A DNA stretch of 64,000 bases from an uncultured Bryobacterales bacterium (GTDB lineage Bacteria > Acidobacteriota > Terriglobia > Bryobacterales > UBA6623): the NCBI GenBank assembly GCA_951813605.1, contig OX638379.1:5096062-5160061 (forward strand). Direction: 5' to 3'. Below the pieces are notes generated by a model that saw only the letters and a program-made list of their open reading frames with translations, was not told the DNA's origin and did no database searches. A program made the position numbers and the translations under genes. The stretch's first letter is position 1. Each line of letters opens with the position of its first letter. Shown in pieces: positions 17,055-55,826 of this stretch.

Positions 17055-17954
17055 ATGTCGGAGGGAAGGGCAAGACCCCCGGGGCCGGTGGTCGGAGCGC
17101 CGAGCCATGCAACCCGAGCGGCTATGCCGCCTCACCCCCTCACGCTGGACGGGTCCGCAGTCCTGCACCAGATGTTCCGGATGCGCTGGGCGGCTTGGCG
17201 CTCGATCGACCGCTCGCAGCGCGCCACGATCAAGGAGGAGGCTCGGGAGGTCCTTGGGTCGATGGAACGCGATCCGCGGGGCGACTCCGCTCTGTTCTCT
17301 ACGATTGGTCACAAGGGCGACCTTCTCATCCTGCACTTTCGCCGGGATTTCGAGCAACTGAACCGCGCCGAGCTGGCTGTGTCGGCCCTGCGCTTGTCCG
17401 AGTTCCTAGAGCCGACCACGTCGTACGTGTCTGTGGTCGAACTCGGGCTGTACGACTCGACGGTGAAGCTTTACGAAGCGATGTTGGACGAGGGCGTTGT
17501 GCCGGACAGCGACGAGTGGAAAGCGGGGCTGCGGGCCCGAACGGACGAGCAGGCCGCGGCGATGGCGCCACGCCTCTATCCCGCGATGCCCCCGCACAAG
17601 TACCTATGCTTCTACCCCATGGACAAGAAGCGCGGCGAACAGCGCAACTGGTACTCGGTCGCCATCGAGGACCGACGGCGCATGATGCGGGAGCACGGCC
17701 TTATCGGACGCCGATTCGCGGGTCGCGTCAAGCAGATCATATCCGGGTCCATCGGTTTCGATGACTGGGAATGGGGCGTCGACCTGTTCGCCGACGATCC
17801 GCTGGTGTTCAAGCAATTGATCTACGAGATGCGATTCGACGAGGCGAGCGCGGTCTATGCCCTGTTCGGTCCGTTCTACATCAGCCTGCGGCTTCCGGCC
17901 TCGGAGTTCGGCAAGTGGCTGGACTTCGACGCGCCCGCTTTCGGCCTGCCCTAA
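17055..17954 (+). CDS. hemQ: Coproheme decarboxylase HemQ (chlorite dismutase family)
   Basis: HemQ carries out the last step of the coproporphyrin-dependent heme pathway, oxidatively decarboxylating coproheme to heme b. The 299-residue frame contains the family blocks [10 protein letters not shown], a central [17 protein letters not shown] with the RMMREHG helix, and the C-terminal [20 protein letters not shown] and LFGPFYI blocks. The charged EHG histidine and neighbouring arginines suit coproheme binding. The first 23 residues (Arg/Pro/Ala rich) look like an extension. ATG 17124 would give 276 residues and a start closer to characterised HemQ proteins. A pathway using HemQ is common in Gram-positive bacteria and also occurs in Acidobacteriota. 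Confidence 0.9.
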
Positions 17955-17989: not shown

Positions 17990-18829
17990 ATGGGTACTAT
18001 AGGAACGAGTCGGATCGTGACGCTGTTTTCCCGACCTTCGCCACGCGACAAAGGAGCACTGGCATTCGCCGTTGCCGTCCTTGCGGCTACATCGCTCGCT
18101 CCGAGCGCTGCGGGTGCGGACTTCGCGCTGGCGTACGTCGGCCCCGAATCCAGCCCAGCGCTGCGGGGCATCCAGCTTGGGATCGACGAGTCGAACATCC
18201 AGGGCGAGTTCTTGGGGGTGCAGCTTGCCCTGGTGAAGGCAGAGCACCAAGCTGTTCCTTCTGGCGCCATCGCTATTTTTGCCGACAGTCTGGGGACGAT
18301 ACCCGACTTGGCCGCGAAGTCCGGCGGCAGGGCGGTCTTCAACCTCAGCGACGGTTCCGATGCCCTTCGCGCGGCCTGCCTACCCAACGCGCTCCACGTG
18401 CATCCCAGCGACAGGATGAAGGCTGACGCGGTCGCGCAATGGCGCGCGCGCAACCCCGGCGCGCGGGTGTCGGCGGCCGCTTGGCACGGCCGCGCCGTCA
18501 AGTTCGCCGCCCGCGATCTGAACAATCGCTACCGAAACCGTTTCGGCACGGACATGGACCAGCTTGCGTGGGCAGGTTGGTTCGCCGCGCGTGCCGTTGG
18601 CGACACACTGATGCGAGATCCGGGCGCGGACGCGGCTTCGCTGCTGCTCTCGCTGAAGGAAGCCGACGGATTGGACGGTCAGAAAGGCGACCCCCATAGC
18701 TTTCGGGCCAGCGGCCAGTTGAGGCAGCCGCTCGTTCTCGTCGATGTCGACGGGAAACTGCTCGGCGAAGCCCCGGTCCGCGGCGCGGCGGGCGGTCTCG
18801 ACAGCCTCGGCACCTCACCTTGCGAGTAA
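17990..18829 (+). CDS. Compact PQQ-catabolism-type ABC substrate-binding-like protein
   Basis: The 279-residue protein has a long signal region with a hydrophobic core AFAVAVLAATSLAP and a signal-peptidase-like SAAGA. The mature part begins FALAYVGPESSPALRG and later reads LRAACLPNALHVHPSDRM, LNNRYRNRFGTDMDQLAWAGW and SFRASGQLRQPLVLV. These resemble the periplasmic binding protein found beside PQQ-dependent alcohol dehydrogenase systems. Compared with that family it seems to lack roughly 80-100 residues between the two conserved parts, so one lobe may be missing. It is the first of three tightly spaced genes; the propeller gene starts 4 bases after it. A ligand-binding role is likely reduced or changed. 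GTG 18017 is an alternative start. Confidence 0.7.
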   Translation: MGTIGTSRIVTLFSRPSPRDKGALAFAVAVLAATSLAPSAAGADFALAYVGPESSPALRGIQLGIDESNIQGEFLGVQLALVKAEHQAVPSGAIAIFADSLGTIPDLAAKSGGRAVFNLSDGSDALRAACLPNALHVHPSDRMKADAVAQWRARNPGARVSAAAWHGRAVKFAARDLNNRYRNRFGTDMDQLAWAGWFAARAVGDTLMRDPGADAASLLLSLKEADGLDGQKGDPHSFRASGQLRQPLVLVDVDGKLLGEAPVRGAAGGLDSLGTSPCE

Positions 18830-18833
18830 AGGC

Positions 18834-19793
18834 ATGCTGCGACTCATTCCCGCTCTCTTCCTGTTTCCGATTCCGCAGGTTCTCGCCGAGCCGACCTACC
18901 GCCTGTTTGTCACCAATGAGGCCGGTGACTCGGTCACCGTCGTCGACAGCCGCACCGGCGAAGTCGAAACGACCGTCGACGTAGGGGACCGACCGCGCGG
19001 AATCGGCTTCAGCCCCGGGCGCGAACGCGTCTATGTGGCCTTGGGCGAGGAGAACGCCATCGGCGTAATCAACACCGCGACTCTAGAGATTGAACGCAAG
19101 GTTCCCGCTGGCTCCGACCCGGAAGCGTTCGCGGTGCACCCAAACGGGACGATCTACCTGTCCAACGAGGACGACGGAGTCGCCACGGCGCTAGACCCGG
19201 AGTCGGGCGAGATACTGGCGGAAATCAAGGTTGGCCTCGAGCCGGAGGGGGTCGGCATCAGTCCTGATGGCGAACAGGTGCTGGTAACGAGCGAGTCGTC
19301 CAACATGGTGCATGTCATCTCGGTGGCCGACAACAAGCTCGTCGCGAACATCCTGGTCGGCGCCAGGCCCCGCGAGGTTGCCTTCAGCCCCGACGGACGG
19401 TTCTTCTGGGTCACTTCAGAGGTTGCCGGCCACGTTTCGAAGGTGGACCGGTCCACCAATCGCATCGTCGCAGTCAACCGTCGCCTGCGGAGGGAGATCA
19501 ACCCGCGCGTGAAGCCGAAAGGCATTGTGCTGAGCCCCGACGGAACTCGCCTGTACGTTTCGCTCGGAAGAGGCAACGCCATCGCCGTGATGGATCCGGA
19601 GACGCTCGAGTTGCAAGGCAGCGTGCCGGTGGGCGTGCGCGTCTGGGGCCTAGCACTTTCGCGCGACGGCAGCAGGCTGTACGCTGCCAACGGCCCCGAT
19701 GCCACCGTCTCGGTCGTCGACACCGCCTCGCTCAAGGAGATCGCGACAATTCCGACCGGCGAGATGCCGTGGGGCGTTGTACTCGATGACTAG
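18834..19793 (+). CDS. YVTN-family beta-propeller, PQQ-dependent-catabolism-associated type
   Basis: The 319-residue exported protein has a signal peptide (MLRLIPALFLFPIPQVLA) and about seven YVTN-like repeats. Each contains a strand turn such as VTNEAGDSVTVVDSRTGEV followed by a glycine-proline and SPDG/SPG-type loop. The run SNEDDGVATALDPESGEIL, then LEPEGVGISPDGEQVLVTSE, closely follows the propeller family linked to PQQ alcohol dehydrogenases. The start at 18834 has AAAGG just upstream. Its stop overlaps the next gene by 8 bases, so translation is coupled. It probably acts in the periplasm as a binding scaffold; no enzymatic residues are apparent. Confidence 0.9.
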   Translation: MLRLIPALFLFPIPQVLAEPTYRLFVTNEAGDSVTVVDSRTGEVETTVDVGDRPRGIGFSPGRERVYVALGEENAIGVINTATLEIERKVPAGSDPEAFAVHPNGTIYLSNEDDGVATALDPESGEILAEIKVGLEPEGVGISPDGEQVLVTSESSNMVHVISVADNKLVANILVGARPREVAFSPDGRFFWVTSEVAGHVSKVDRSTNRIVAVNRRLRREINPRVKPKGIVLSPDGTRLYVSLGRGNAIAVMDPETLELQGSVPVGVRVWGLALSRDGSRLYAANGPDATVSVVDTASLKEIATIPTGEMPWGVVLDD

Positions 19794-20739
19794 CCGGAGC
19801 GTCCAGAGCCTCTTGGTCGCCGGGCTTCTAATCGTCTCGTCCGCTCGCGAGCTCGACGCCGGAGAGATCGGGACGCTGGAGGCGATCGGCTGGAAGCTGT
19901 TCTTCGACCCCTTGCTTTCGGCGCCGCGCAACACCTCCTGTTCCACATGTCACGTACCGGAGAAGGGCTTCGAGTCCGGCGTGGCGCTCGGCGAGGGGGC
20001 TTACGGCGACATCTTGCCCAGAAACGCCCCCACGGTTGTCAATCTGAACGATGCGGAGTTCTTTTTTTGGGACGGCCGCGCGGCTTCCCTCGAGGAGCAG
20101 GCCAGGGGGCCGATCGAGAATCCCATTGAAATGGATCTATCCCTCGACGAAGCGGCCCGGCGAGTCCGCGCCGAGCCGCGCTACGCCAGGGCATTCGCCA
20201 TGGTTGGCGTCGAGGACATCACCATCGGACAAATTGCGCGCGCGATTGCGGCGTTCGAGAGGCGCCTTACGACGGGGCCAACCCTGTACGACAAATGGCT
20301 CGAAGGAGACCGCTCGGTGTTCAACGCGGCACAGGAGCGCGGACGCATGATTTTTTTCACGCGCGGGCAATGCGCCACCTGCCATTTCGGCCCCAACTTT
20401 ACCGACGGAATGTTCCATAACATCGGCACCGGCTCCCCCGAGGATCCCGGGCGGGCAGCGATAAGCAAGGACGACTACGACTTGGGGGCGTTCAAGACGC
20501 CCGCACTCCGTAATTGGAAGGGGCGCGAGCCGTTCATGCACGATGGCCGGTTCGAGACACTGGACGAGGTTCTGGAATTCTATAACGAGCCCAAGACCGG
20601 CGCGTTCGGGGAGACCGAGCTCGATCCACTCGAACTCACTGAGCGGGACCATGCGGACATCAAGGCGTTCTTGGAGACCCTGAACGGCACGTGGCCTGAC
20701 CTAGCTCCGTACGAAGCGGCTTGGAACGCCCTGCAGTGA
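19786..20739 (+). CDS. Diheme cytochrome c peroxidase/MauG-family protein
   Basis: The 317-residue protein is exported (hydrophobic stretch LLVAGLLIVSSA) and carries two covalent heme motifs, CSTCH (52-56) and CATCH (196-200). The family features FFDPLLSAPRNTSCSTCH, an ALRNWKGREPFMHDGRFETL block and a C-terminal DIKAFLETLNGTW are present. Family members reduce hydrogen peroxide or oxidise protein residues, as MauG does. Here it is overlapped with the PQQ-associated propeller gene, so a partner role in the same periplasmic redox system is likely. The alcohol dehydrogenase itself is not in the window. Confidence 0.92.
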   Translation: MTSRSVQSLLVAGLLIVSSARELDAGEIGTLEAIGWKLFFDPLLSAPRNTSCSTCHVPEKGFESGVALGEGAYGDILPRNAPTVVNLNDAEFFFWDGRAASLEEQARGPIENPIEMDLSLDEAARRVRAEPRYARAFAMVGVEDITIGQIARAIAAFERRLTTGPTLYDKWLEGDRSVFNAAQERGRMIFFTRGQCATCHFGPNFTDGMFHNIGTGSPEDPGRAAISKDDYDLGAFKTPALRNWKGREPFMHDGRFETLDEVLEFYNEPKTGAFGETELDPLELTERDHADIKAFLETLNGTWPDLAPYEAAWNALQ

Positions 20740-31363: not shown

Positions 31364-32518
31364 TCATTCGTCGGCGCGGGCGAAGCAATACACCTCCCCG
31401 CTGCGCGAGCCGATCACGATCCGCCCATCGGCGATTGCCGGCGACGCCACGATCCGCCCTCCAATCGCGAACTTCCAGAGCAGCGATCCGTCGGAATGGT
31501 CAAGCGCGTAGAGGTTGCCGTCCATGGACCCGACCCAGATCACGTTGCCTGCGAGAGCGGGCGAGGAGTCCACCCTGGAGCCGGTTTGGAAATCCCATTC
31601 CAGCTCTCCGCTCTGCTCGTCAATGGCATGGACGCGCTTGTCTCGTCCACCGATGACTACGAGACCTCCGCTGACGACAGGAGAGGCGAAAAACTCGAAA
31701 TCGGTCTCGGGATGGTCGTATCGCCACGCGACCTTGCCGTCCTCCCAGTCGATCTTAAGCACTTCGTAGCCGAACGTGCCGACATACGCGGACCCGCCGA
31801 CGACAGCCGGCGACGCGGCTACGTAATCCCTCATGTCGACGAACGCGTCCTCTTCGCCGCTCTTGATGTCGATGATGCGGAACTTGCCGTCGCAACCGGT
31901 AATGAACGTCTTCCCTCCGACGACCGCCGGACTGGAATTGACCCGATCATCGGTCTGGTACTTCCAGAGCACCTTTCCTGTCTCCGGGTCAAATGCGTAA
32001 AGGTGCGTGTCGTAGGACCCGACCAGCACTGCCTCGTCGCTGCAATGCGGTGAAGAAAGGATCTCGGCGAAGGTCTGGTAAATCCAGCTGGCTTCGCCAG
32101 TTTCGATATCGACCGCGTGGAAGTAGCCTTCCTCGTCGCCGAAGAACACCGTGCCTCGCGCCACGCAGCCGGACGCAGGGACTCCGAGGTTTGCCTGGTA
32201 GACCCACTGCGCCTTGCCGGTTTCCAAGTCTACGGCGTGAAAGCGCCCATCCATCTCGCCGAAATAGACGGTGCCGTCTACGATGATCGCCGTCGAGTCG
32301 ACTCCGCCGGGAGCGTCGTACACCCACTGGACGTCCAATGGCGGATCGATATCTGATTCCGCGATGGCATTCCGGTCGCTGTTGCCTAGGAACAGTGGCC
32401 AGTCCGCTGCTCGGGACAGCGTTCCGTGGGCCATCAGGACCGCTGCCCACAAGACCCAAGCGCAATTCAATGCAGGTTTCCCGTGGGTTCCGGCAGTTTC
32501 TCCCGCTTGGTGATTCAT
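31364..32518 (-). CDS. PQQ-like beta-propeller protein (BamB-like repeats)
   Basis: The 384-residue protein is exported (hydrophobic CAWVLWAAVLMAHGTLSRA) and made of about seven repeats. Each reads like VDSTAIIVDGTVYFGEMDGRFHAVDLETG followed by W-Y-Q, the pyrrolo-quinoline-quinone-like propeller repeat. There are no quinoprotein catalytic ligands and no lipobox, so it is better seen as a scaffold or binding propeller than as a PQQ enzyme or a strict BamB. It lies 48 bases upstream of the sulfatase on the same strand, and a shared function in glycan handling is possible but unproven. Confidence 0.9.
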   Translation of the reverse strand: MNHQAGETAGTHGKPALNCAWVLWAAVLMAHGTLSRAADWPLFLGNSDRNAIAESDIDPPLDVQWVYDAPGGVDSTAIIVDGTVYFGEMDGRFHAVDLETGKAQWVYQANLGVPASGCVARGTVFFGDEEGYFHAVDIETGEASWIYQTFAEILSSPHCSDEAVLVGSYDTHLYAFDPETGKVLWKYQTDDRVNSSPAVVGGKTFITGCDGKFRIIDIKSGEEDAFVDMRDYVAASPAVVGGSAYVGTFGYEVLKIDWEDGKVAWRYDHPETDFEFFASPVVSGGLVVIGGRDKRVHAIDEQSGELEWDFQTGSRVDSSPALAGNVIWVGSMDGNLYALDHSDGSLLWKFAIGGRIVASPAIADGRIVIGSRSGEVYCFARADE

Positions 32519-42936: not shown

Positions 42937-45345
42937 GTGGCGGAATGTCGTGACAAGGTCTTGCGAAGCTGCTGTAGATGCGTCTCCGTCGTCAGCCTGT
43001 CCCTAGCGTTCTGCCTGCTGATTGGGCTGCCTGTAAGCTCTGCGCAACTGATTCTTGCACCTGCTGCCGCCACGGAGCAGGGGCTTGCTTCGACTCCTCG
43101 AAAGGTCCTTGACCGTTACTGCGTTGCCTGCCACGGCGAGCAGTTGGCAACGGCCGGCCTGCGGCTTGACTCGGCCGATATCGCGCATATCGGCAGCGAC
43201 CCCGAGACGTGGGAGCATGTGGTCCATAAGCTCCGGACCGGAATCATGCCTCCCGCAGGAATGCCGCAGCCTCCCGGAGCAGACCGCCGGTCGCTCCTCG
43301 ACTGGCTGGAAGCCTCGCTTGACGAAGCGGCGGCAGAGAATCCGAATCCAGGCAGGACGGAGGCTTTGCGCCGTCTCAACCGCACCGAGTATGGGAACGC
43401 GATTCGGGATCTTCTTGCCATCGAAATCGATGTGAATTCCCTGCTGCCCCACGACGAGAGCGGACACGGATTTGACAATGTGAACGTCGGCGATCTGTCT
43501 CCGACTCTTCTGGGCCGATACATCACCGCTGCGCAGAGAATCAGCCGCGTGGCGGTCGGCGGCAGCGCTTCCGCGCCCCAAACCGATATCGTTCGCGTCA
43601 AGCCGGACTTCACGCAGGAACGGCATTTGCCGGGCCTGCCGATAGGGAGTCGTGGGGGCGTCGCGTTTCCGTTCGTGTTCCTTCAATCCGGCCAGTATGA
43701 AGTCCAGATTTGGCTGTCGCGCAACAGGAACGAAGAAATCGAGGGGCTCAGTAGACCGCATGACGTCCACCTCATTCTCGACCGGGAGCTCGTGCAGAGA
43801 TTTACCGTCGCCCCGCCCGCAGACCGCTTCGACCACTCGCAGGTGGACAAGCACCTCAAGGTGCGTTTGAATGTGACCGCCGGACCGCACGACTTGGCTG
43901 TGACCTTCCCCAATACCCAGGCGTCGCTCCTCGAGACGATGCGGCAGCCGACCCAATCGCGCTTCAACATGCACCGGCACCCCCGTACTGCTCCGGCGGT
44001 GTTCCAAGTTTCGATCACTGGCCCGCACAAGGGGCGGAGCCCAGGCGACACGCCGAGCCGAAGGCGGCTGTTCTCGTGCCGGCCTGCCGTTCCGGCCGAG
44101 GAGGAACACTGCGCCGGCGAGATTCTTTCCACGCTCGTGCGACGCGCCTATCGCAGGCCGATCACGAAAGCCGATTTAGCCGGGCCGATGGCCTTTTACC
44201 GGAAAGGCCGGTCCGAGGGGGATTTCGACGTGGGCCTGGAGAAGGCGCTCACAGCAGTGCTAGTGAGCCCGGAATTCCTGTTTCGCACGGAGACGGACCA
44301 CCGCAGCTCGGCACCGAACCGGGCTTTTCGTATCAGCGATATTGAACTCGCATCGCGCCTCTCCTTCTTTCTTTGGAGCAGCATTCCCGACGACGCGTTG
44401 CTGGATGCCGCGGCACGGGGCGAGCTCAGCCGCCCGCAGGTGCTCGAGAGGCAGGCTCGGAGAATGCTGGCCGATCCGCGCTCCTCGAATCTCGCCACGA
44501 ACTTCGCCGGACAGTGGCTCAATTTGGGAAAGCTGGAATCGTTCTCGCCCAATGCGAGGCTCTTCCCCGACTTCGATGACAACCTTCGCCGCGCCTTCCG
44601 CGAAGAGACGGAGCGCTTCGTGGACAGCGTTTTTCGCGAGAACCGAAGCGTGCTTGACCTGATCAGCGCGGACTATACATTTCTAAACGAGCGATTGGCC
44701 AAGCACTACCGGGTTCCCGGAATCTACGGAAGCAGGTTCCGGCGCGTTGCACTGGGAGAGGGGAGCAGGCGTGGCGGCTTGCTCCGCCACGGCAGCGTGT
44801 TGACGGTGACTTCGTATCCGACGCGCACGTCGCCTGTCTTGCGAGGGACGTGGATTCTGGAAAACATCTTCGGAGCCCCGCCGCCCCCGCCGCCCCCCAA
44901 CGTCCCGACGCTCGACAATTCGGTTTCCGCTTCGCTGCCGATGCGCCAAAGACTGAGCGCTCACCGGGCCAATCCCGCGTGCGCGAGCTGCCACGAGACG
45001 CTCGACCCCATAGGATTCGCGATGGAGAATTTCGACGCGCTCGGTCGCTGGAGGGACTACGAGGACGGTGTGCCTGTGGACGCATCGGGGGGCCTCCCGG
45101 GGGCTAGTGAGTCCGATGTCGGCGTCGGCGGCCTCGAGAACAGCCTTCTGGCACGGCCGGAGCTGTTCGCCGGGACATTGACCAGGAAACTGCTGACATT
45201 CGCGCTCGGGCGCGGGGTCGAGTACTTCGACGCCCCCGCGATCCGGAAAATACTGCGCGAGGCTGAGCCCGGCGGCTATCGCTTCTCGGCGCTCGTACTG
45301 GGTATCGTGAAAAGCGTGCCGTTCCAGATGAGGAGACCCACATGA
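42937..45345 (+). CDS. DUF1592-type multi-domain cytochrome-like protein, copy 1
   Basis: The 802-residue exported protein has a hydrophobic signal region (SLAFCLLIGLPVSSA) and a planctomycete-type heme motif CVACH (62-66). Further along come LRRLNRTEYGNAIRDL (DUF1587-like), YFLWSSIPDDALL-type DUF1592, TSYPTRTSPVLRGTWIL (DUF1588) and ELFAGTLTRKLLTFALGRG (DUF1585). A second heme motif CASCH is near 682-686. The function of this family is unknown; a periplasmic c-type cytochrome joined to binding domains is the usual view. The GTG start at 42937 is preceded by two possible promoters. Its stop overlaps the following DUF1552 gene as ATGA. Confidence 0.93.
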   Translation: MAECRDKVLRSCCRCVSVVSLSLAFCLLIGLPVSSAQLILAPAAATEQGLASTPRKVLDRYCVACHGEQLATAGLRLDSADIAHIGSDPETWEHVVHKLRTGIMPPAGMPQPPGADRRSLLDWLEASLDEAAAENPNPGRTEALRRLNRTEYGNAIRDLLAIEIDVNSLLPHDESGHGFDNVNVGDLSPTLLGRYITAAQRISRVAVGGSASAPQTDIVRVKPDFTQERHLPGLPIGSRGGVAFPFVFLQSGQYEVQIWLSRNRNEEIEGLSRPHDVHLILDRELVQRFTVAPPADRFDHSQVDKHLKVRLNVTAGPHDLAVTFPNTQASLLETMRQPTQSRFNMHRHPRTAPAVFQVSITGPHKGRSPGDTPSRRRLFSCRPAVPAEEEHCAGEILSTLVRRAYRRPITKADLAGPMAFYRKGRSEGDFDVGLEKALTAVLVSPEFLFRTETDHRSSAPNRAFRISDIELASRLSFFLWSSIPDDALLDAAARGELSRPQVLERQARRMLADPRSSNLATNFAGQWLNLGKLESFSPNARLFPDFDDNLRRAFREETERFVDSVFRENRSVLDLISADYTFLNERLAKHYRVPGIYGSRFRRVALGEGSRRGGLLRHGSVLTVTSYPTRTSPVLRGTWILENIFGAPPPPPPPNVPTLDNSVSASLPMRQRLSAHRANPACASCHETLDPIGFAMENFDALGRWRDYEDGVPVDASGGLPGASESDVGVGGLENSLLARPELFAGTLTRKLLTFALGRGVEYFDAPAIRKILREAEPGGYRFSALVLGIVKSVPFQMRRPT

Positions 45346-46685
45346 TCGTCACCAAGAAGGCGCTGGCGAGGCGCACTTTCCTTCGGGGGATGCAGGTGAG
45401 TCTGGCCTTGCCGCTGCTGGATGCAATGATACCGGCGGCAACCGCCTTGAACAAGACGCCGGCGAATCCCGTACCCAGGCTAGGGTTCGTGTTTATTCCG
45501 ATGGGCTGCGACCATTCCCGCTGGACGCCGAGCGATTCGCCGCAGCTCGGCGAGCTGTCCCCGATCCTCGCGCCGCTGGAGAATGTCAAGGACGACCTAG
45601 TCGTTTTTACGAATTTCGATCTAAAGAACGCCTATCCCGGGACGCATTCGACTTCGAATGCAGCTTTTCTGAGCGCAGCCTTCGCGAAGCACACCGAAAG
45701 CTCGGACTACTATCTCGGCACAACCGTCGACCAGCACGCGGCGAGGCGGCTCGGCAAGGAGACGCAATTACCGTCGCTAGAGCTATCGATGGACCTGCTG
45801 CAGACCGTCGGCCAATGCAACAACGGATACGCTTGCGTGTACCAGAACAACCTCTCGTGGTCCTCGCCGACGTCCCCGCTTCCGTCGGAAGCACACCCGC
45901 GCACGGTTTTCGAGCGGCTGTTCGGCGAGGGCGGGAGTATCGGTGACCGACGCGCGGCGTTGAGGGAGAGGGCCAGCCTTCTGGATTGGGTCAGGGAGGA
46001 CATCACGCGTCTGAAGGCGAAACTCGGAACTGCGGACCGCAACCGGGTCGATGGCTACCTCACCAGCATCCGCGAGGTCGAGCGCCAGATCCAGCGAGCC
46101 GAAGCCGGGGCCGCCGACAATCCGCTTCCCGATCTAGACCGTCCGAAAGGCGTCCCCGCGGCTTACGCCGATCACGCCAGGTTGATGTTCGACCTGCAAT
46201 TGCTTGCCTTCCAAGGAGACATCACAAGGGTTATCACCTTCCAGCTCGCGCGCGAGCTCAGCGGACGCACCTATCCCGAAGTAGGCGTGCCCGACCCCCA
46301 TCACCCGTTGAGCCACCACGGCAACGACCCGGAAAAGGTCGAGAAGATTTCCCGGATCAACCGGTTCCATGTCTCGCTATTCGCGGAGTATCTTGAAAAG
46401 CTCAAGGCCACGCCGGACGGAGACGGGTCGCTGCTGGACCACTCCGTCCTCCTGTACGGAAGCGGCATGGGCAACCCCAGTACCCACGACCACGACAACT
46501 TGCCGATTCTCGTCGCGGGAGGGGCGTCGTGCGGCGTGACGGGCGGGCGCCATGTCAGGTTCGACCGCGGCATGCCCTTGGCCAATCTTCACTTGACGCT
46601 ACTTGATCGCGTGGGAGTTCACTTGGACTCATTCGGAGACAGCGATGGCAAGATCGACGATCTTTTCGAGCCTGTGGCGGTGTAA
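45342..46685 (+). CDS. DUF1552 family Tat-exported protein, copy 1
   Basis: The 447-residue protein begins MIVTKKALARRTFLRGMQ, a twin-arginine signal, so it is exported folded. The core has DUF1552 landmarks: a FVFIPMGCDHSRWTPS-type N-terminal strand, an HSTSNAAFLSA segment and histidine-rich HPLSHHGNDPEKV. GSGMGNPSTHDHDNLPILVAGG is followed by a C-terminal DRVGVHLDSFGDS. The shape recalls alkaline-phosphatase-like or DUF1501 folds, but no enzyme activity is established. It always seems to accompany DUF1592, here with a 4-base overlap and AGGAG ribosome site. Confidence 0.92.
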   Translation: MIVTKKALARRTFLRGMQVSLALPLLDAMIPAATALNKTPANPVPRLGFVFIPMGCDHSRWTPSDSPQLGELSPILAPLENVKDDLVVFTNFDLKNAYPGTHSTSNAAFLSAAFAKHTESSDYYLGTTVDQHAARRLGKETQLPSLELSMDLLQTVGQCNNGYACVYQNNLSWSSPTSPLPSEAHPRTVFERLFGEGGSIGDRRAALRERASLLDWVREDITRLKAKLGTADRNRVDGYLTSIREVERQIQRAEAGAADNPLPDLDRPKGVPAAYADHARLMFDLQLLAFQGDITRVITFQLARELSGRTYPEVGVPDPHHPLSHHGNDPEKVEKISRINRFHVSLFAEYLEKLKATPDGDGSLLDHSVLLYGSGMGNPSTHDHDNLPILVAGGASCGVTGGRHVRFDRGMPLANLHLTLLDRVGVHLDSFGDSDGKIDDLFEPVAV

Positions 46686-51643: not shown

Positions 51644-52113
51644 GCTTTCAATCGGGCCGGATTCGTCTAGCCTAGAAGTGCCTGCCCGTATTCTCGGTTG
51701 CTGTTGGCAGCCTCCAATGACACCGCTTGCGCTGGCTTTGTTCCCGCGCCGCCATGGACGGCAAGGGCACGGACCGAACCGAGCCGATACTGAGGCACAC
51801 AAGAGTCCTGAACGAGCCAGCCTCAGGCAGACCGTCTGGACGTGACGACTGGCAATTTGTCTTGATGTTTCGGTAACGTGTCTCTGGTCCAAACCCGCAA
51901 GCGTTGCTCTGCGCAACTTCCCCCGCGGCCTTACCAACCGGGTACTATTGTGATAGCCTCCGTTTCGAAAGTCCGTTGCTCCGTTTCGAACGAGGGTTCC
52001 CGGATCGTAGCTGCGACGGCGGAAGATTGCATTGGGATGCTTTCCCCGATCTTGCTATTCGCAGCTGTGCCGGAATCCTGCAATGCGCTCCGGAAGCGTC
52101 GGAGGGCATTTCA
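51644..52113. other. Upstream region of the second DUF1592 operon
   Basis: About 470 bases lie between the divergent M23 and DUF1592 genes. A 12-base direct repeat (51958-51990) and a GGAGG ribosome site just before ATG 52114 are present. A weak TTACCA-17-TAGCCT pair (51931-51959) is possible. No gene is supported. Confidence 0.5.
51958..51990 (+). repeat. Direct repeat CTCCGTTTCGAA, two copies, 21-bp period
   Basis: CTCCGTTTCGAA occurs at 51958-51969 and 51979-51990, exactly two helical turns apart. Each copy contains the palindromic TTCGAA. This layout suits a regulator that binds one face of the DNA upstream of DUF1592 copy 2. Confidence 0.55.
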
Positions 52114-54495
52114 ATGACGACACTGCCGCGTGTTGGCTGGTTATTGATGTGTGTGATGGCGCTTCAGGCGACGCCGTCGAATGACCGCATCGACGAGTCT
52201 TTTCGGAACGAGATCCAGCCCCTGCTCAAGACCTACTGCGCACGGTGCCACGGCCCCGAGCTCCAAACCGCCGGCATAGTTTTTGAGGCATTCACTGATC
52301 ACGATTCGGTCGTGCGGGCACGTCCTCTCTGGTTGCGGGCCCTGCGCGTACTGCGCGAAAACGAAATGCCGCCGGTGGACCCGCAACCCAGCATCGAAGA
52401 GCGTCAGTTGTTGATTTCCTGGATCGACGACGCCGTCAACAATCTCGATTGGAGCGAGTTCCGGAATCCGGGATCTGTCACGATTTCCCGTCTCAATCGA
52501 ACCGAATACAACAACACGATTCGCGACCTCACCGGACTGGATCTGCGTCCCGCCGCGGCGTTTCCGGTGGACGGGCAGGGAGAGAGCGGCTTCCGCAACG
52601 ACCGAGACGGCCTGTTCGTGGCGCCGATGCTAGCGGAGAAGTACCTGGAAGCGGCGAACGATGTGGTCGATGTCTTGATCTCGACTAGGAAATCCCGCGA
52701 CAGCCTGAATGTGCGCCTTGAAATCGAGGACTTCATGCGCACGGAGACGAATCACGAATTCACCGCCTACGGGCTGGACTTGCGCAACTACCAGCAGACC
52801 GTCTATCGCTACGTCACTTTCCCGCAGTTCGGTCGGTACAAATTCCGTGTCCGAGCATGGGGGGAGTCTCCGGTAGAAGGGCAGACGCCGGGCGTCACCT
52901 TGCGAGTCGGCGGGCGGATCGTCGGTCAGTCGCATGTAACGGCAGATCCGGATTCCCCCGGGATCTACGAGTTCGAGGCCAACATTCCGCAGGGCAGCCA
53001 TCGCGTTTCGCTGCACTGGTTCAAGTCCGCGACTGCCGAGACCAACGACTACAACCGCCAGCTCGCAGCCGAAGCCAAGCGACTCGCCGAAGCTGCCAAG
53101 GCGGAAGGCAAGAAACCGCCCCCGAAGTTCGTGATCCTTTCCTTGGACTGGGTCGAAATCAAGGAAGACTGGGAGTCCGGGCAGGATGGCTCTCTGGTTT
53201 GGATCGCCCAGCCGGGGAACGGCCTGTCAGAGCGCAAGGCCGCTCGCCGAGTCTTGGCTAACTTCGCCGAGCGCGCCTACCGAGGGCCGGTGAAGCGATC
53301 CGAAACGGATCGCCTGATGGGTTTCTATTCGCGCGCCAAGACGCGCGGCCAGCCCTTTGAACAGGCGGTCGGCCTCGGATTGCGTGCAGCGTTGGTATCT
53401 CCGCGGTTCTTGTACCGGGCCGAGAGGGGCGGAACGGCATCAGGCGAGTATCGATTGAGCGATTACGAGCTTGCGTCACGTCTCTCTTACTTCCTTTGGA
53501 TGTCGATGCCTGACCAGGAGCTGACGGATCTAGCTCGCAAGGGGGCTCTCGGGCATACGGAAACTCTCCGCGGCCAGGTCGTGAGAATGCTCGCGAACCC
53601 AAAATCCCGGGCCTTCACGTCAACATTTGTCGGGCAGTGGCTCGGTTTTGCCGAGCTAGGCGGGACCATCAAGCCCGACGATGTCACGTTCCCGGAGTTC
53701 ACGCCCGCTCTCGGGGAGGCAATGCTGGAGGAGGCGACGCGTTACTTTGACCGCATCGTCCGCGAGGATCGGAGCCTGTTGGAACTTCTGAATTCCGACT
53801 ACAGCTATCTCAATGAAGAGCTAGCGAGGCACTACGGCATCGAAGGGATTGCCGGTCGCGAGATCCGTCTCGTCGAATTCGACGACAGGCGGCGAGGCGG
53901 AGTGCTCGGCATGGGTGCCGTGCTGACCGCGACTTCGCTGCCTGCCCGAACGAGTCCGGTTGTGCGGGGGAAGTGGGTGCTGGAAACGATGCTCGGCGAG
54001 GAACTGCCGCCCCCGCCCCCCGATGCCGGGGAGCTGCCGGAGCCGGGCGAGAGCTCTAAGGGCATGACCATGCGCCAGATGTTCGAGATGCATCGGGATG
54101 AAGCGAGGTGCGCCGTTTGTCACGACCGGATCGATCCGATCGGTTTCGGCTTGGAGAATTTCGATGCGATCGGGAGGTGGCGCGACACCGAGAATGAGCA
54201 GCCCGTGGACGCAACCGGCACCTTGCCGAGCGGCGAGAGTTTCAATGGCCCGGGCGAACTCAAGAGAATTCTTCTCGGTCGGCGCGAGGCATTCGCGCGG
54301 ATGATCTGCGAACAGATGCTTAAGTTTGCGCTTGGCCGCGATTTAGAATACTATGATGAACCTACGGTTCAGCGAATCAGCGAAGCCGTGATTCGCCGAA
54401 ACTACAGCGCGTTGACGATGGTCGCGGAGATCGTCAGCAGCTATCCGTTCCGTTACAGGCGGGGCGCGACCGAGACCGCAGAGGAGCGCAAGTAA
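52114..54495 (+). CDS. DUF1592-type multi-domain cytochrome-like protein, copy 2
   Basis: The 793-residue protein has the same domain order as copy 1: a signal segment (VGWLLMCVMALQA), heme motif CARCH (42-46), and SRLNRTEYNNTIRDLTGL (DUF1587-like). DUF1592 reads SYFLWMSMPDQELTDL. Then come DUF1588 (SLPARTSPVVRGKWVLE), a second heme motif CAVCH (666-670) and DUF1585 (AFARMICEQMLKFALGRD). It has an inserted lysine-rich helix near residue 320 (AEAKRLAEAAKAEGKKPPPK). A GGAGG ribosome site is well placed. It overlaps the following DUF1552 gene by one base. Confidence 0.93.
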   Translation: MTTLPRVGWLLMCVMALQATPSNDRIDESFRNEIQPLLKTYCARCHGPELQTAGIVFEAFTDHDSVVRARPLWLRALRVLRENEMPPVDPQPSIEERQLLISWIDDAVNNLDWSEFRNPGSVTISRLNRTEYNNTIRDLTGLDLRPAAAFPVDGQGESGFRNDRDGLFVAPMLAEKYLEAANDVVDVLISTRKSRDSLNVRLEIEDFMRTETNHEFTAYGLDLRNYQQTVYRYVTFPQFGRYKFRVRAWGESPVEGQTPGVTLRVGGRIVGQSHVTADPDSPGIYEFEANIPQGSHRVSLHWFKSATAETNDYNRQLAAEAKRLAEAAKAEGKKPPPKFVILSLDWVEIKEDWESGQDGSLVWIAQPGNGLSERKAARRVLANFAERAYRGPVKRSETDRLMGFYSRAKTRGQPFEQAVGLGLRAALVSPRFLYRAERGGTASGEYRLSDYELASRLSYFLWMSMPDQELTDLARKGALGHTETLRGQVVRMLANPKSRAFTSTFVGQWLGFAELGGTIKPDDVTFPEFTPALGEAMLEEATRYFDRIVREDRSLLELLNSDYSYLNEELARHYGIEGIAGREIRLVEFDDRRRGGVLGMGAVLTATSLPARTSPVVRGKWVLETMLGEELPPPPPDAGELPEPGESSKGMTMRQMFEMHRDEARCAVCHDRIDPIGFGLENFDAIGRWRDTENEQPVDATGTLPSGESFNGPGELKRILLGRREAFARMICEQMLKFALGRDLEYYDEPTVQRISEAVIRRNYSALTMVAEIVSSYPFRYRRGATETAEERK

Positions 54496-55826
54496 TGGCA
54501 GGCAATCTCATTTCGAGACGATCCGTTCTCAGGGGCGCGGGGGTGACGATCGCACTGCCTTTCCTTGACACGACAGAGCCGGCGCGCGCTGCTGCGCGTC
54601 GACCCGTGCCCGGCGATCCGGTCCGGCTCGCGACATTGTTCCACCCGAACGGGGTCTATCCGCCGAACTGGGATCCTGAAGGCTCCGGCCGCGACTACAA
54701 GCTCTCCCGCATTTTAGAGCCGTTGGCAACGGTCAAGGAACACGTCAGCGTCATTTCGAACCTGGGAACGGGCGCCCAAGGCCACGTCGGAGCGACATCC
54801 TCGTTCTTGACGGGCACGCCTCTGCACAAGAAGGCTGCTGGACGGATCAACACGCCCAACATGGGGGTCTCGCTGGACCAGTTTGTCGCGGAGCGCATCG
54901 GACACCGAAACAGCATTGCCTCGCTCGAGGTCGGCACGGAGCCGCCGCGCTCCGGAGGGGAAAACGGGCTGGCGATATCGTATGCCAACACGGTCTCGTG
55001 GCGCACCGACAATACGAAGGTCGATCCCGAGATCGAACCGCAGGCGGTCTTCGACAGGCTATTCGGCGTTACCAAGAAGAACCGCCAGCAGCTAGCGGAC
55101 GAGGCGAGCATCATTGATCACGTGCTTGAGGACGCCAAGGCGATGAGCGTCCGGGGCAGCGAGGCCGACCGGCGCAAGCTGGACGAATTCCTGACATCGG
55201 TGCGCGATGTGGAGAAGCGCATCGAGCGCAATCTGAACCCGGCCGACCCGGAAGCCGAGTGGAAGCCGCTGGTTGAACCGGACCTGTACCGTCCCGAAGC
55301 AGGCATTCCGACGACGCGGGACGAGCACCTGCGCCAGATGCTCGACCTCATCGTGCTGGCACTCCAGACCAATACCACGCGCGTCGCGACATTCATGATG
55401 GCGCACGGGTTCAGCCGCCAGAACTTCACCTTCCTGGACGGCGTCAGCGGCGATCACCACTCGATCTCCCATCACAAGGAAAACCCGGAACTGACCGAGC
55501 CCTACACCATCGTCAGCCGCTGGTATGTTTCGCAACTCGTCTACTTGGTCGAGAAGCTGAACTCAATCCGGGAGCGCGATGGCAGGACTCTGCTCGATAA
55601 CACCATGGTCCTGTACGGTTCTGCGCTGAAGAACGGCAACGGACACACGACGCAGAACCTGCCGATTCTGCTGGCGGGTCGCGGCGGCGGGAAGCTCCGC
55701 CCGGGTCGACGGATCGTGCTGCCCGAAGAGACTCCGATAACCAATTTCCATCTGACATTGGCTCAGAACATGGGCGTTGAGGCGGATCGCTTCAACAACA
55801 GCACGGGAACGGTCACCGAGCTCTAG
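54495..55826 (+). CDS. DUF1552 family Tat-exported protein, copy 2
   Basis: The 443-residue protein begins MAGNLISRRSVLRGAGVT, a twin-arginine signal. The core matches copy 1 of the pair: LATLFHPNGVYPPNWDPEG, HVGATSSFLTGTPL, HSISHHKENPEL and a YGSALKNGNGHTTQNLPIL segment. Its divergence from copy 1 is large, suggesting an old duplication or independent acquisition. It overlaps DUF1592 copy 2 by one base (TAATG), so translation is coupled. No enzymatic residues can be named. Confidence 0.92.
   Translation: MAGNLISRRSVLRGAGVTIALPFLDTTEPARAAARRPVPGDPVRLATLFHPNGVYPPNWDPEGSGRDYKLSRILEPLATVKEHVSVISNLGTGAQGHVGATSSFLTGTPLHKKAAGRINTPNMGVSLDQFVAERIGHRNSIASLEVGTEPPRSGGENGLAISYANTVSWRTDNTKVDPEIEPQAVFDRLFGVTKKNRQQLADEASIIDHVLEDAKAMSVRGSEADRRKLDEFLTSVRDVEKRIERNLNPADPEAEWKPLVEPDLYRPEAGIPTTRDEHLRQMLDLIVLALQTNTTRVATFMMAHGFSRQNFTFLDGVSGDHHSISHHKENPELTEPYTIVSRWYVSQLVYLVEKLNSIRERDGRTLLDNTMVLYGSALKNGNGHTTQNLPILLAGRGGGKLRPGRRIVLPEETPITNFHLTLAQNMGVEADRFNNSTGTVTEL

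What the first reader, a model, noticed from the sequence alone, without database searches (positions are those of the whole stretch)
17990..20739. PQQ-catabolism-like cassette without its dehydrogenase or transporter
A compact ABC-type binding protein, a YVTN propeller closely matching the PQQ-dependent-catabolism type and a MauG-like diheme protein sit in a tight operon. The quinoprotein alcohol dehydrogenase, ABC ATPase and permease that usually accompany the first two are absent. The binding protein seems to have lost 80-100 internal residues. The group may have been recruited to another periplasmic redox task, for example protein-residue oxidation by the diheme enzyme.
Basis: partly seen in the sequence, partly recalled or inferred. 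Interest (0 to 1): 0.5.

Follow-up and report, generated by a model that had tools for sequence, protein, structure and literature searches.

The report
Shortened lanthanide-type binding protein operon
Three neighbouring, probably exported proteins of an acidobacterium include a shortened relative of a rare-earth-metal binding protein, its usual propeller partner and a diheme peroxidase-like enzyme, without the membrane pump that normally goes with the first two, which suggests that those two have a job that needs no import.

Summary
SBP (17990-18829), PROP (18834-19793) and MAUG (19786-20739) form a tight trio. PROP passes the curated cut-off of TIGR03866 (PedA2/LutB type). SBP is a TIGR03863 (PedA1/LutA type) relative lacking about 89 residues, the core of the second lobe of the clamshell. 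The gap is the same in all 30 short SBPs aligned (Bryobacterales and kin, Gammaproteobacteria, one unidentified bacterium); 30 full-length ones have the block, and none is intermediate. PROP follows the short SBP in 29 of 29 loci, ATPase or permease in none at my thresholds.

'PQQ catabolism' is a misleading label: the characterised homologues serve lanthanide uptake. In the unidentified bacterium the pair lies beside a XoxF-like/MoxJ/CoxB cluster; in some gammaproteobacteria beside kinases with a MoxY domain. Best reading: a transporter-free LutAB-like module serving periplasmic quinoproteins. MAUG, seen only in the Bryobacterales loci, has the MauG/BthA ligand tyrosine position; its substrate is unknown.

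The lanthanide link is weakest in this genome: no quinoprotein beside the trio and no canonical PQQ synthesis hit. New variant of a known kind.

The parts
17990..18829 (+). SBP: shortened relative of the PedA1/LutA-type binding protein, 279 aa, with signal-peptide-like start; cysteines C130 and C278 conserved
   Evidence: TIGR03863 100.8 bits in two stretches; model pLDDT 81.2, type-I SBP fold, VIA Z 22.0, 221 aligned; C130 30/30 short and 30/30 full, C278 30/30 and 29/30
18440..18484 (+). Deletion junction: codons W151 to W165 of SBP; 13 residues between them here, 101-102 in full-length relatives
   Evidence: MAFFT of 60 SBPs
18834..19793 (+). PROP: YVTN propeller of PedA2/LutB type with signal-peptide-like start; E29, E112, E154, E196 at the same place of blades 1, 3, 4, 5
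   Evidence: TIGR03866 312.6 over cut-off 287.3; the four Glu invariant in 54 of 54 rows
19786..20739 (+). MAUG: diheme CCP_MauG protein with signal-peptide-like start; CXXCH at residues 52-56 and 196-200, W95, E115, ligand position Y266
   Evidence: PF03150 167.5 bits; Y266 aligned with MauG Y294; numbering; all conserved in 12 of 12 rows
17055..17954 (+). HemQ-type coproheme decarboxylase gene directly upstream; synteny partner in the genus, not counted as part of the core
   Evidence: NF008913 323.2 over cut-off 253; within 200 bp upstream in 8 of 9 same-genus loci (about 1.7 kb away in L033) and in L041; no hit in L042-L045

Best explanation
The trio is a transporter-free version of the LutA-LutB (PedA1-PedA2) pair with a MauG-like enzyme added. 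SHOWN by sequence: SBP lacks the core of the second lobe, and no matching ATPase over cut-off was found in the genome; PROP keeps the residues invariant in the transporter-linked family. INFERRED: with one lobe missing SBP cannot close on a ligand as a normal binding protein does and is now a docking or stabilising subunit for PROP; PROP uses a charged face (four glutamates at equivalent blade positions plus arginines) to hold a trivalent metal or a metal chelate in the periplasm and serves exported quinoprotein dehydrogenases or their sensor kinase, without import into the cytoplasm. MAUG probably works as a peroxide-driven Tyr/His-ligated diheme oxidase on a residue of a partner protein, or as a peroxidase that protects the module. 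Neither the ligand of PROP nor the substrate of MAUG is shown.
For: PROP over the TIGR03866 cut-off. PedA1A2BC lowers the La3+ needed for growth 100-fold; lutA and lutB mutants grow slowly with La while lutE and lutF mutants do not grow before suppressors arise, so A and B are separable from the pump (passages of PMC6839425 and PMC7391723). Spacing 13-14 residues in 29 and 5 in 1 of 30 short SBPs, 101-102 in 30 of 30 full ones; the missing block, about residues 167-258 of L104, is the strand-helix core of lobe 2 in the model (lobe limits from general knowledge). Short and full types split 100/100 (SBP) and 100/99 (PROP) in trees. Short-clade loci: PROP directly after SBP in 29 of 29, ATPase or permease in 0 of 29 at my thresholds in the stretch held. 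L084: short SBP-PROP divergent from a TIGR03075 quinoprotein, MoxJ-2, cytochrome c and CoxB; YncE is named in the XoxF3 cluster legend of PMC10875860. Gamma loci: LapD_MoxY_N in 5 of 5 kinases scanned, 4 over cut-off; MxaY controls the lanthanide switch in Methylomicrobium (abstract). TIGR03075 over cut-off in 17 of 17 gamma/L084 genomes, 0 of 14 control genomes; D-x-D read in 16 of 17.
Against: In this window no quinoprotein lies beside the pair; quinoproteins over cut-off are in 121 of 150 relatives while SBP is in 15 of 150, so there is no tight coupling in Bryobacterales. No PqqE over cut-off and no PqqC match (PqqC without a positive control). 3 of 10 scanned own quinoproteins score better to 'acido-empty-quinoprotein' TIGR04528, below its cut-off. 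D-x-D as a lanthanide sign is recalled, and no background rate was measured; 10 of 11 own quinoproteins have it, so it may be the usual state. The 14 control genomes are not gamma relatives. Whether the gamma kinases are MxaY orthologues, or the L084 enzyme of the XoxF3 clade, was not tested. No metal was modelled; the charged residues could bind PQQ, a peptide or a protein. 14 of 31 full-length-type loci also showed no permease in the stretch held, so local absence alone says little.
Confidence: 0.45

Rival explanations
1. The trio is a redox unit unrelated to lanthanides: MAUG is the enzyme, PROP and SBP are its partner or substrate, and the LutAB ancestry is only history.
For: MAUG Tyr ligand position, bridging Trp and acid-base Glu are conserved; trio order kept in 12 of 14 Bryobacterales loci, window included; no canonical PQQ synthesis hit in the genome; the short-specific W151 (29 of 30 short, 0 of 30 full SBPs) could be an oxidisable residue.
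Against: Pair without MAUG beside it in 16 of 16 gamma-type loci and 2 of 14 Bryobacterales loci; W151 is present there too; PROP residues shared with the transporter-linked family. MAUG-like genes elsewhere in the gamma genomes were not searched.
Confidence: 0.25
2. SBP-PROP is a periplasmic sensor input: it binds a signal (metal or alcohol-related) and presents it to a MoxY-type histidine kinase, in place of uptake into the cytoplasm.
For: Response regulator in 7 and kinase in 6 of 16 gamma-type loci by BLAST grouping; kinase domain LapD_MoxY_N in 5 of 5 scanned; MxaY controls the lanthanide switch. AmiC (1qo0, Z 18.4) is a regulator with the type-I SBP fold.
Against: I recognised no kinase by eye among the frames around the trio in the window or in L041-L045 (not searched by profile); kinase in only 6 of 16 gamma-type loci, several contigs being short.
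Confidence: 0.15
3. PROP-SBP handles PQQ itself (scavenged cofactor) rather than a metal.
For: 7 TIGR03075 quinoproteins over cut-off but no PqqE over cut-off and no PqqC match in this genome; invariant arginines of PROP suit an anionic ligand.
Against: Phenotypes of the characterised homologues follow La; PQQ synthesis in the gamma genomes was not tested.
Confidence: 0.11
4. SBP-PROP is a decaying remnant of a Lut/Ped transporter without function.
For: Lobe 2 is missing and no ATPase over cut-off was found.
Against: Open, syntenic genes with one shared gap in two phyla; 65-75% (SBP) and 79-84% (PROP) identity between same-genus loci and the window; 30 PROP columns invariant over 54 rows.
Confidence: 0.04

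Closest known systems
PedA1-PedA2 of PedA1A2BC (Pseudomonas putida KT2440)
   Same: Binding protein and TIGR03866 propeller encoded side by side; PROP over the curated cut-off; same family names in PMC12997753 (table passage)
   Different: No permease or ATPase beside the trio; SBP lacks 88-89 residues of lobe 2; SBP precedes PROP in the short clade, PROP precedes SBP in the full-length-type loci where both were placed
LutA-LutB of the lut cluster (Methylorubrum extorquens AM1)
   Same: Reported similar to PedA1/PedA2 (passage of PMC6839425); lutA and lutB mutants have a like, partial La phenotype
   Different: No pump genes beside the trio; the LutA and LutB sequences themselves were not compared here
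XoxF3 clusters with YncE in Acidobacteria and Gemmatimonadetes (PMC10875860)
   Same: L084 has the short SBP-PROP pair beside XoxF-like, MoxJ-2, cytochrome c and CoxB genes
   Different: The window trio is not beside such a cluster; the passages seen name YncE and no short binding protein
MauG / BthA / MbnH diheme enzymes
   Same: Two CXXCH, Tyr at the MauG Y294 position, Trp as in MauG
   Different: Below the curated cut-offs of MauG (208.5 of 443.85) and MbnH (160.1 of 362.85); partner unknown

Membership tests
TIGR03863 PQQ_ABC_bind (PedA1/LutA type) | Curated score cut-off 413.6 | tested here: not met
   100.8 bits; for comparison full-length L104 474.9, L110 432.9, L088 414.4, and L096 408.9, itself just below
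TIGR03863 PQQ_ABC_bind (PedA1/LutA type) | Binding protein covering the whole profile, both lobes | tested here: not met
   Profile 12-124 and 221-339 matched, middle absent; 13 against 101-102 residues
TIGR03866 PQQ_ABC_repeats (PedA2/LutB type) | Curated score cut-off 287.3 | tested here: met
   312.6 bits, profile 11-308 of 310
Lut/Ped lanthanide ABC transporter | ATPase of TIGR03864 type in the genome | tested here: not met
   Best of 38 matches 233.8 of 302.25
Lut/Ped lanthanide ABC transporter | Permease of PedC/LutF type in the genome | not tested
   Sought only beside the short-clade loci: 0 of 29
Lut/Ped lanthanide ABC transporter | Lanthanide-dependent phenotype or lanthanide binding | not testable with these tools
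   Needs experiment
MauG TIGR03791 | Curated score cut-off 443.85 | tested here: not met
   208.5 bits
MauG/BthA-like Tyr-ligated diheme enzymes | Tyr at the axial ligand position of the six-coordinate heme (MauG Y294, BthA Y463) | tested here: met
   Y266 aligned with MauG Y294 and with the BthA Tyr, conserved in 12 of 12; ligation itself not shown
MauG | Methylamine dehydrogenase beta subunit as substrate in the operon | tested here: inconclusive
   No such family among the six window proteins scanned; the rest of the genome was not searched
Type-I (LivJ-like) substrate-binding fold | Structural match | tested here: met
   3n0w_A Z 22.0, rmsd 2.7, 221 aligned; full-length L104 model Z 32.2, rmsd 3.2, 333 aligned

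The most novel reading that the evidence does not exclude
The short SBP-PROP pair is a periplasmic chaperone that loads a lanthanide-PQQ holo-cofactor into exported quinoproteins without any import step: PROP offers glutamates for the metal and arginines for the PQQ carboxylates, the one-lobe SBP docks it to the dehydrogenase, and in Bryobacterales the MauG-like enzyme oxidises a residue of the acceptor or of the pair during maturation. It would be a chaperone grown out of an ABC importer by deleting one lobe of its binding protein and dropping the pump.
Probability: 0.1. Interest if true: 0.8.

Novelty: new variant of a known kind. Interest (0 to 1): 0.5.

Why it matters
What LutB/PedA2 does is open (PedA2 is 'of unknown function' in the passage of PMC6839425). 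A natural clade that kept the propeller residues, cut one lobe from the binding protein and has no pump beside it says that the pair may have a job outside uptake, and names the residues to test. It also warns that the database label 'PQQ-dependent catabolism' should not be read as catabolism.

Tried and rejected
Deletion as assembly error or single-species loss: rejected, 30 of 30 short SBPs share it. Second, full-length SBP in the same genomes: in the own genome and in 16 of 17 gamma/L084 genomes the only TIGR03863 matches are two stretches of the short protein; the seventeenth (G558) gave no match, probably because its SBP is partly masked in L085; 0 of 17 pass the cut-off. In 396 Acidobacteriota genomes 6 match and 0 pass. 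Of the five weak hits outside the own genome three (L117-L119) had no PROP at 150 bits or more; L120 and L121 were fetched but not analysed. MAUG substrate by conserved tryptophan: W151 is short-specific but also present where no MAUG lies beside the pair, so dropped. The gathering of invariant PROP residues in the BC and DA loops (26 of 30, Fisher 3e-12) is partly circular, since I set the DA loops by their motifs; I rest on the 12 charged loop residues, none identical in 1l0q in the alignment (counted by eye). SBP had no solved relative by sequence (best E 0.53). A plasmid search for a MauG reference gave none labelled MauG among the rows shown and was not used. Promoter and terminator scans were no better than shuffles. 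Paper searches: family name (3 papers), lutA/lanthanide/MauG, PedA1A2BC, MauG/MbnH, LutB/lanthanide, pedA2/propeller, lanthanide/Acidobacteria/ABC/XoxF (70), Bryobacterales/sponge/lanthanide, MxaY, acido-empty-quinoprotein (101, none). No listed title is about a short form; only the passages or abstracts named in this report were read, so this does not show that it is unpublished.

Rows dropped: hits under 150 bits (PROP), 60 (MAUG) and 120 (ATPase) were not printed; L085 (masked SBP) and L116 (no SBP hit) are not in the SBP alignment; 8 of 31 full-length-type loci are not in the PROP alignment (no plus-strand hit at 1e-30). Of 12 own quinoprotein loci fetched, one (L133) was not aligned.
Full report
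What is there. Between 17990 and 20739 three plus-strand genes lie 4 bp apart (SBP, PROP) or overlap by 8 bp (PROP, MAUG), behind a HemQ-type gene that ends at 17954. All three proteins begin with a signal-peptide-like stretch (sequence reading). PROP passes the curated cut-off of TIGR03866 (312.6 of 287.3). SBP matches TIGR03863 in two separated stretches and fails its cut-off (100.8 of 413.6). MAUG is a CCP_MauG protein below the cut-offs of MauG and MbnH. The window lies in a 6.19 Mb single-contig genome; named contigs equal in length to those of its relatives are titled Bryobacterales, Terriglobia or Acidobacteria MAGs. I call this set Bryobacterales.

What is not there. The only TIGR03863 matches in the genome are the two stretches of this SBP; one TIGR03866 protein passes the cut-off, this PROP; no TIGR03864 ATPase passes (best 233.8 of 302.25 among 38 matches). 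A permease was not searched genome-wide. Quinoproteins are plentiful elsewhere: 7 places over the TIGR03075 cut-off. No PqqE over cut-off (best 68.1 of 381.35, a place that reads as MoaA to me) and no PqqC match, the latter without a positive control.

The deletion. In an alignment of 60 SBPs (window, L056-L083, L084, and 30 full-length ones) the stretch between the columns of W151 and W165 has 13 residues in 25, 14 in 4 and 5 in 1 of the 30 short proteins, and 102 in 29 and 101 in 1 of the 30 full-length ones; nothing lies between. In the model of full-length L104 (mean pLDDT 84.7) the missing block, about residues 167-258, holds strands 171-176, 199-205, 231-235, 255-257 and helices 180-196, 212-218, 220-224, 241-248, the core of the second lobe of a LivJ-type binding protein (lobe limits from general knowledge). 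The window SBP model (pLDDT 81.2, pTM 0.78) still has that fold: 3n0w_A Z 22.0 with 221 aligned, against Z 32.2 with 333 aligned for the full-length model. Two cysteines survive: C130 30/30 and 30/30, C278 30/30 short and 29/30 full.

Who has it. Of 150 genomes searched as relatives (own included) 15 match SBP; all 15 are among the 18 listed as the window's family, and one of them (G002) is a contig-end fragment. Among 13 relatives' loci that reach past SBP, 11 keep the trio; L042 and L043 (one genus) have SBP-PROP without MAUG in the 18 kb held; a fourteenth contig (L046) ends inside SBP. The genome-contig scan gave 61 loci: 13 are the same Bryobacterales contigs, 16 are Gammaproteobacteria or unplaced Proteobacteria, L084 is an unidentified bacterium, and 31 (L086-L116) are of the full-length type (30 aligned; L116 gave no SBP hit). 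PROP directly follows the short SBP in 29 of 29 (without L084); ATPase or permease in 0 of 29; a quinoprotein hit in 1 of 29, weak (L078, 40 bits; the same locus as L045, where a quinoprotein-like frame lies about 6 kb upstream); MAUG in 11 of 13 Bryobacterales and 0 of 16 gamma-type loci. Of the 31 full-length-type loci 17 showed the permease, 10 the ATPase, 29 a quinoprotein and 0 a MAUG, at my thresholds and within the stretch held. None of 17 gamma/L084 genomes has a TIGR03863 match over cut-off; 16 show the same broken match and nothing else. Trees separate short from full with 100/100 (SBP, 60 rows) and 100/99 (PROP, 54 rows); in the PROP tree Bryobacterales and gammas are one clade each (100/98, 100/97), in the SBP tree they do not resolve, and L084 is a long branch in both.

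What the homologues do. In P. [quoted passage not shown] In M. extorquens lutA and lutB mutants grow slowly with La, while lutE and lutF mutants do not grow until suppressors arise (passages of PMC7391723). So the name 'PQQ-dependent catabolism' misleads, and A and B are genetically separable from the pump.

Context of the short pair elsewhere. In L084, divergent from SBP-PROP, lie a TIGR03075 quinoprotein (654 of 480.05, motif HDYD), a MoxJ-2 protein (317.6 of 212.15), a cytochrome c and CoxB (164 of 147.7). [quoted passage not shown] the clade of the L084 enzyme was not tested. By BLAST grouping of called frames, neighbours in the 16 gamma-type loci are an aldehyde:ferredoxin oxidoreductase in 9, a pyridine-nucleotide oxidoreductase in 9, a 4Fe-4S protein in 8, a porin in 10, a LuxR-type response regulator in 7 and a histidine kinase in 6 (identities from examples). 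The kinase has LapD_MoxY_N in 5 of 5 scanned (L083 at 22.4 under the cut-off 25). [quoted passage not shown] orthology with these kinases was not tested. All 17 gamma/L084 genomes have a TIGR03075 protein over cut-off, against 0 of 14 well-known control genomes, which are not their relatives. In 30 of these loci D-x-D stands at the catalytic place in at least one protein of 16 of 17 genomes; for G548 only 2 of its 11 matches were read, both D-F/Y-T. That D-x-D marks lanthanide enzymes is recalled, and no background rate was measured.

In the own genome 10 of 11 aligned quinoproteins have D-x-D (12 loci fetched). But 3 of 10 scanned score better to TIGR04528 'acido-empty-quinoprotein' than to TIGR03075, below the former's cut-off, and quinoproteins over cut-off are in 121 of 150 relatives, so their presence does not follow that of SBP. 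The quinoprotein link is therefore direct for L084, by co-occurrence for the gammas, and only plausible here.

PROP residues. E29, E112, E154 and E196 stand at the same place of blades 1, 3, 4 and 5; with R53, R55, E97, E136, E138, R178, R180 and R269 they are invariant in 54 of 54 rows from both subfamilies. None of these 12 is identical in the generic YVTN protein 1l0q in the alignment (counted by eye). That they share one face follows from propeller topology (general knowledge), not from a measured model. Their conservation suggests that the ligand stayed the same after the pump was lost.

MAUG. The C-terminal segment aligns Y266 with Y294 of MauG (3sjl) and with the Tyr of BthA (6nx0; chain 6v59 has Met there). 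In BthA this Tyr (Y463) ligates the six-coordinate heme; exchanging it to His removes the near-infrared feature of the bis-Fe(IV) state, as reported for MauG Y294H (passages of PMC6405878). W95 and E115 match the bridging Trp and the acid-base Glu by motif (my assignment). They, Y266 and both CXXCH are conserved in 12 of 12 rows. So MAUG looks like a MauG/BthA-type enzyme rather than a Met-ligated peroxidase, though over the whole length its best solved match is a cytochrome c peroxidase (1iqc, E 2.1e-43; MauG 3l4m 4.6e-21) and it is not a member of TIGR03791 by score. Its substrate is unknown.

Verdict. The trio is real and conserved. It is a half-clamshell version of the LutA-LutB pair without its pump, with a MauG-like addition in Bryobacterales. 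The deletion, its spread, the missing ATPase and the shared PROP residues are shown; the mechanism (docking subunit plus a propeller that holds metal or cofactor for periplasmic quinoproteins or their sensor) is inference.

Noticed in passing
own genome, G000:C1 (L122-L132): Seven quinoprotein genes over the TIGR03075 cut-off but no PqqE over cut-off and no PqqC match (the latter without a positive control); scavenged PQQ or PQQ-free quinoprotein folds are possible.
   Followed up: partly
L065, L066, L069, L070, L073, L076, L080, L081, L085: The short SBP-PROP pair lies divergently beside an aldehyde:ferredoxin oxidoreductase gene in 9 of 16 gamma-type loci, often with a 4Fe-4S protein and an FAD-type oxidoreductase; a possible link of tungsten-type aldehyde oxidation with quinoprotein alcohol oxidation.
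   Followed up: partly
window 17055-17954: HemQ-type coproheme decarboxylase gene just upstream of the trio; kept there in 8 of 9 same-genus loci and L041, no hit in L042-L045.
   Followed up: no
window 31364-32518: Another PQQ-repeat propeller protein on the minus strand; own-genome PF13360 matches at C1:5127524-5128387 fall here.
   Followed up: no
window 42937-46685 and 51904-55826: Two like pairs of a large gene and a following gene with a twin-arginine-like start; the first large protein shows a CVACH motif (reading by eye).
   Followed up: no
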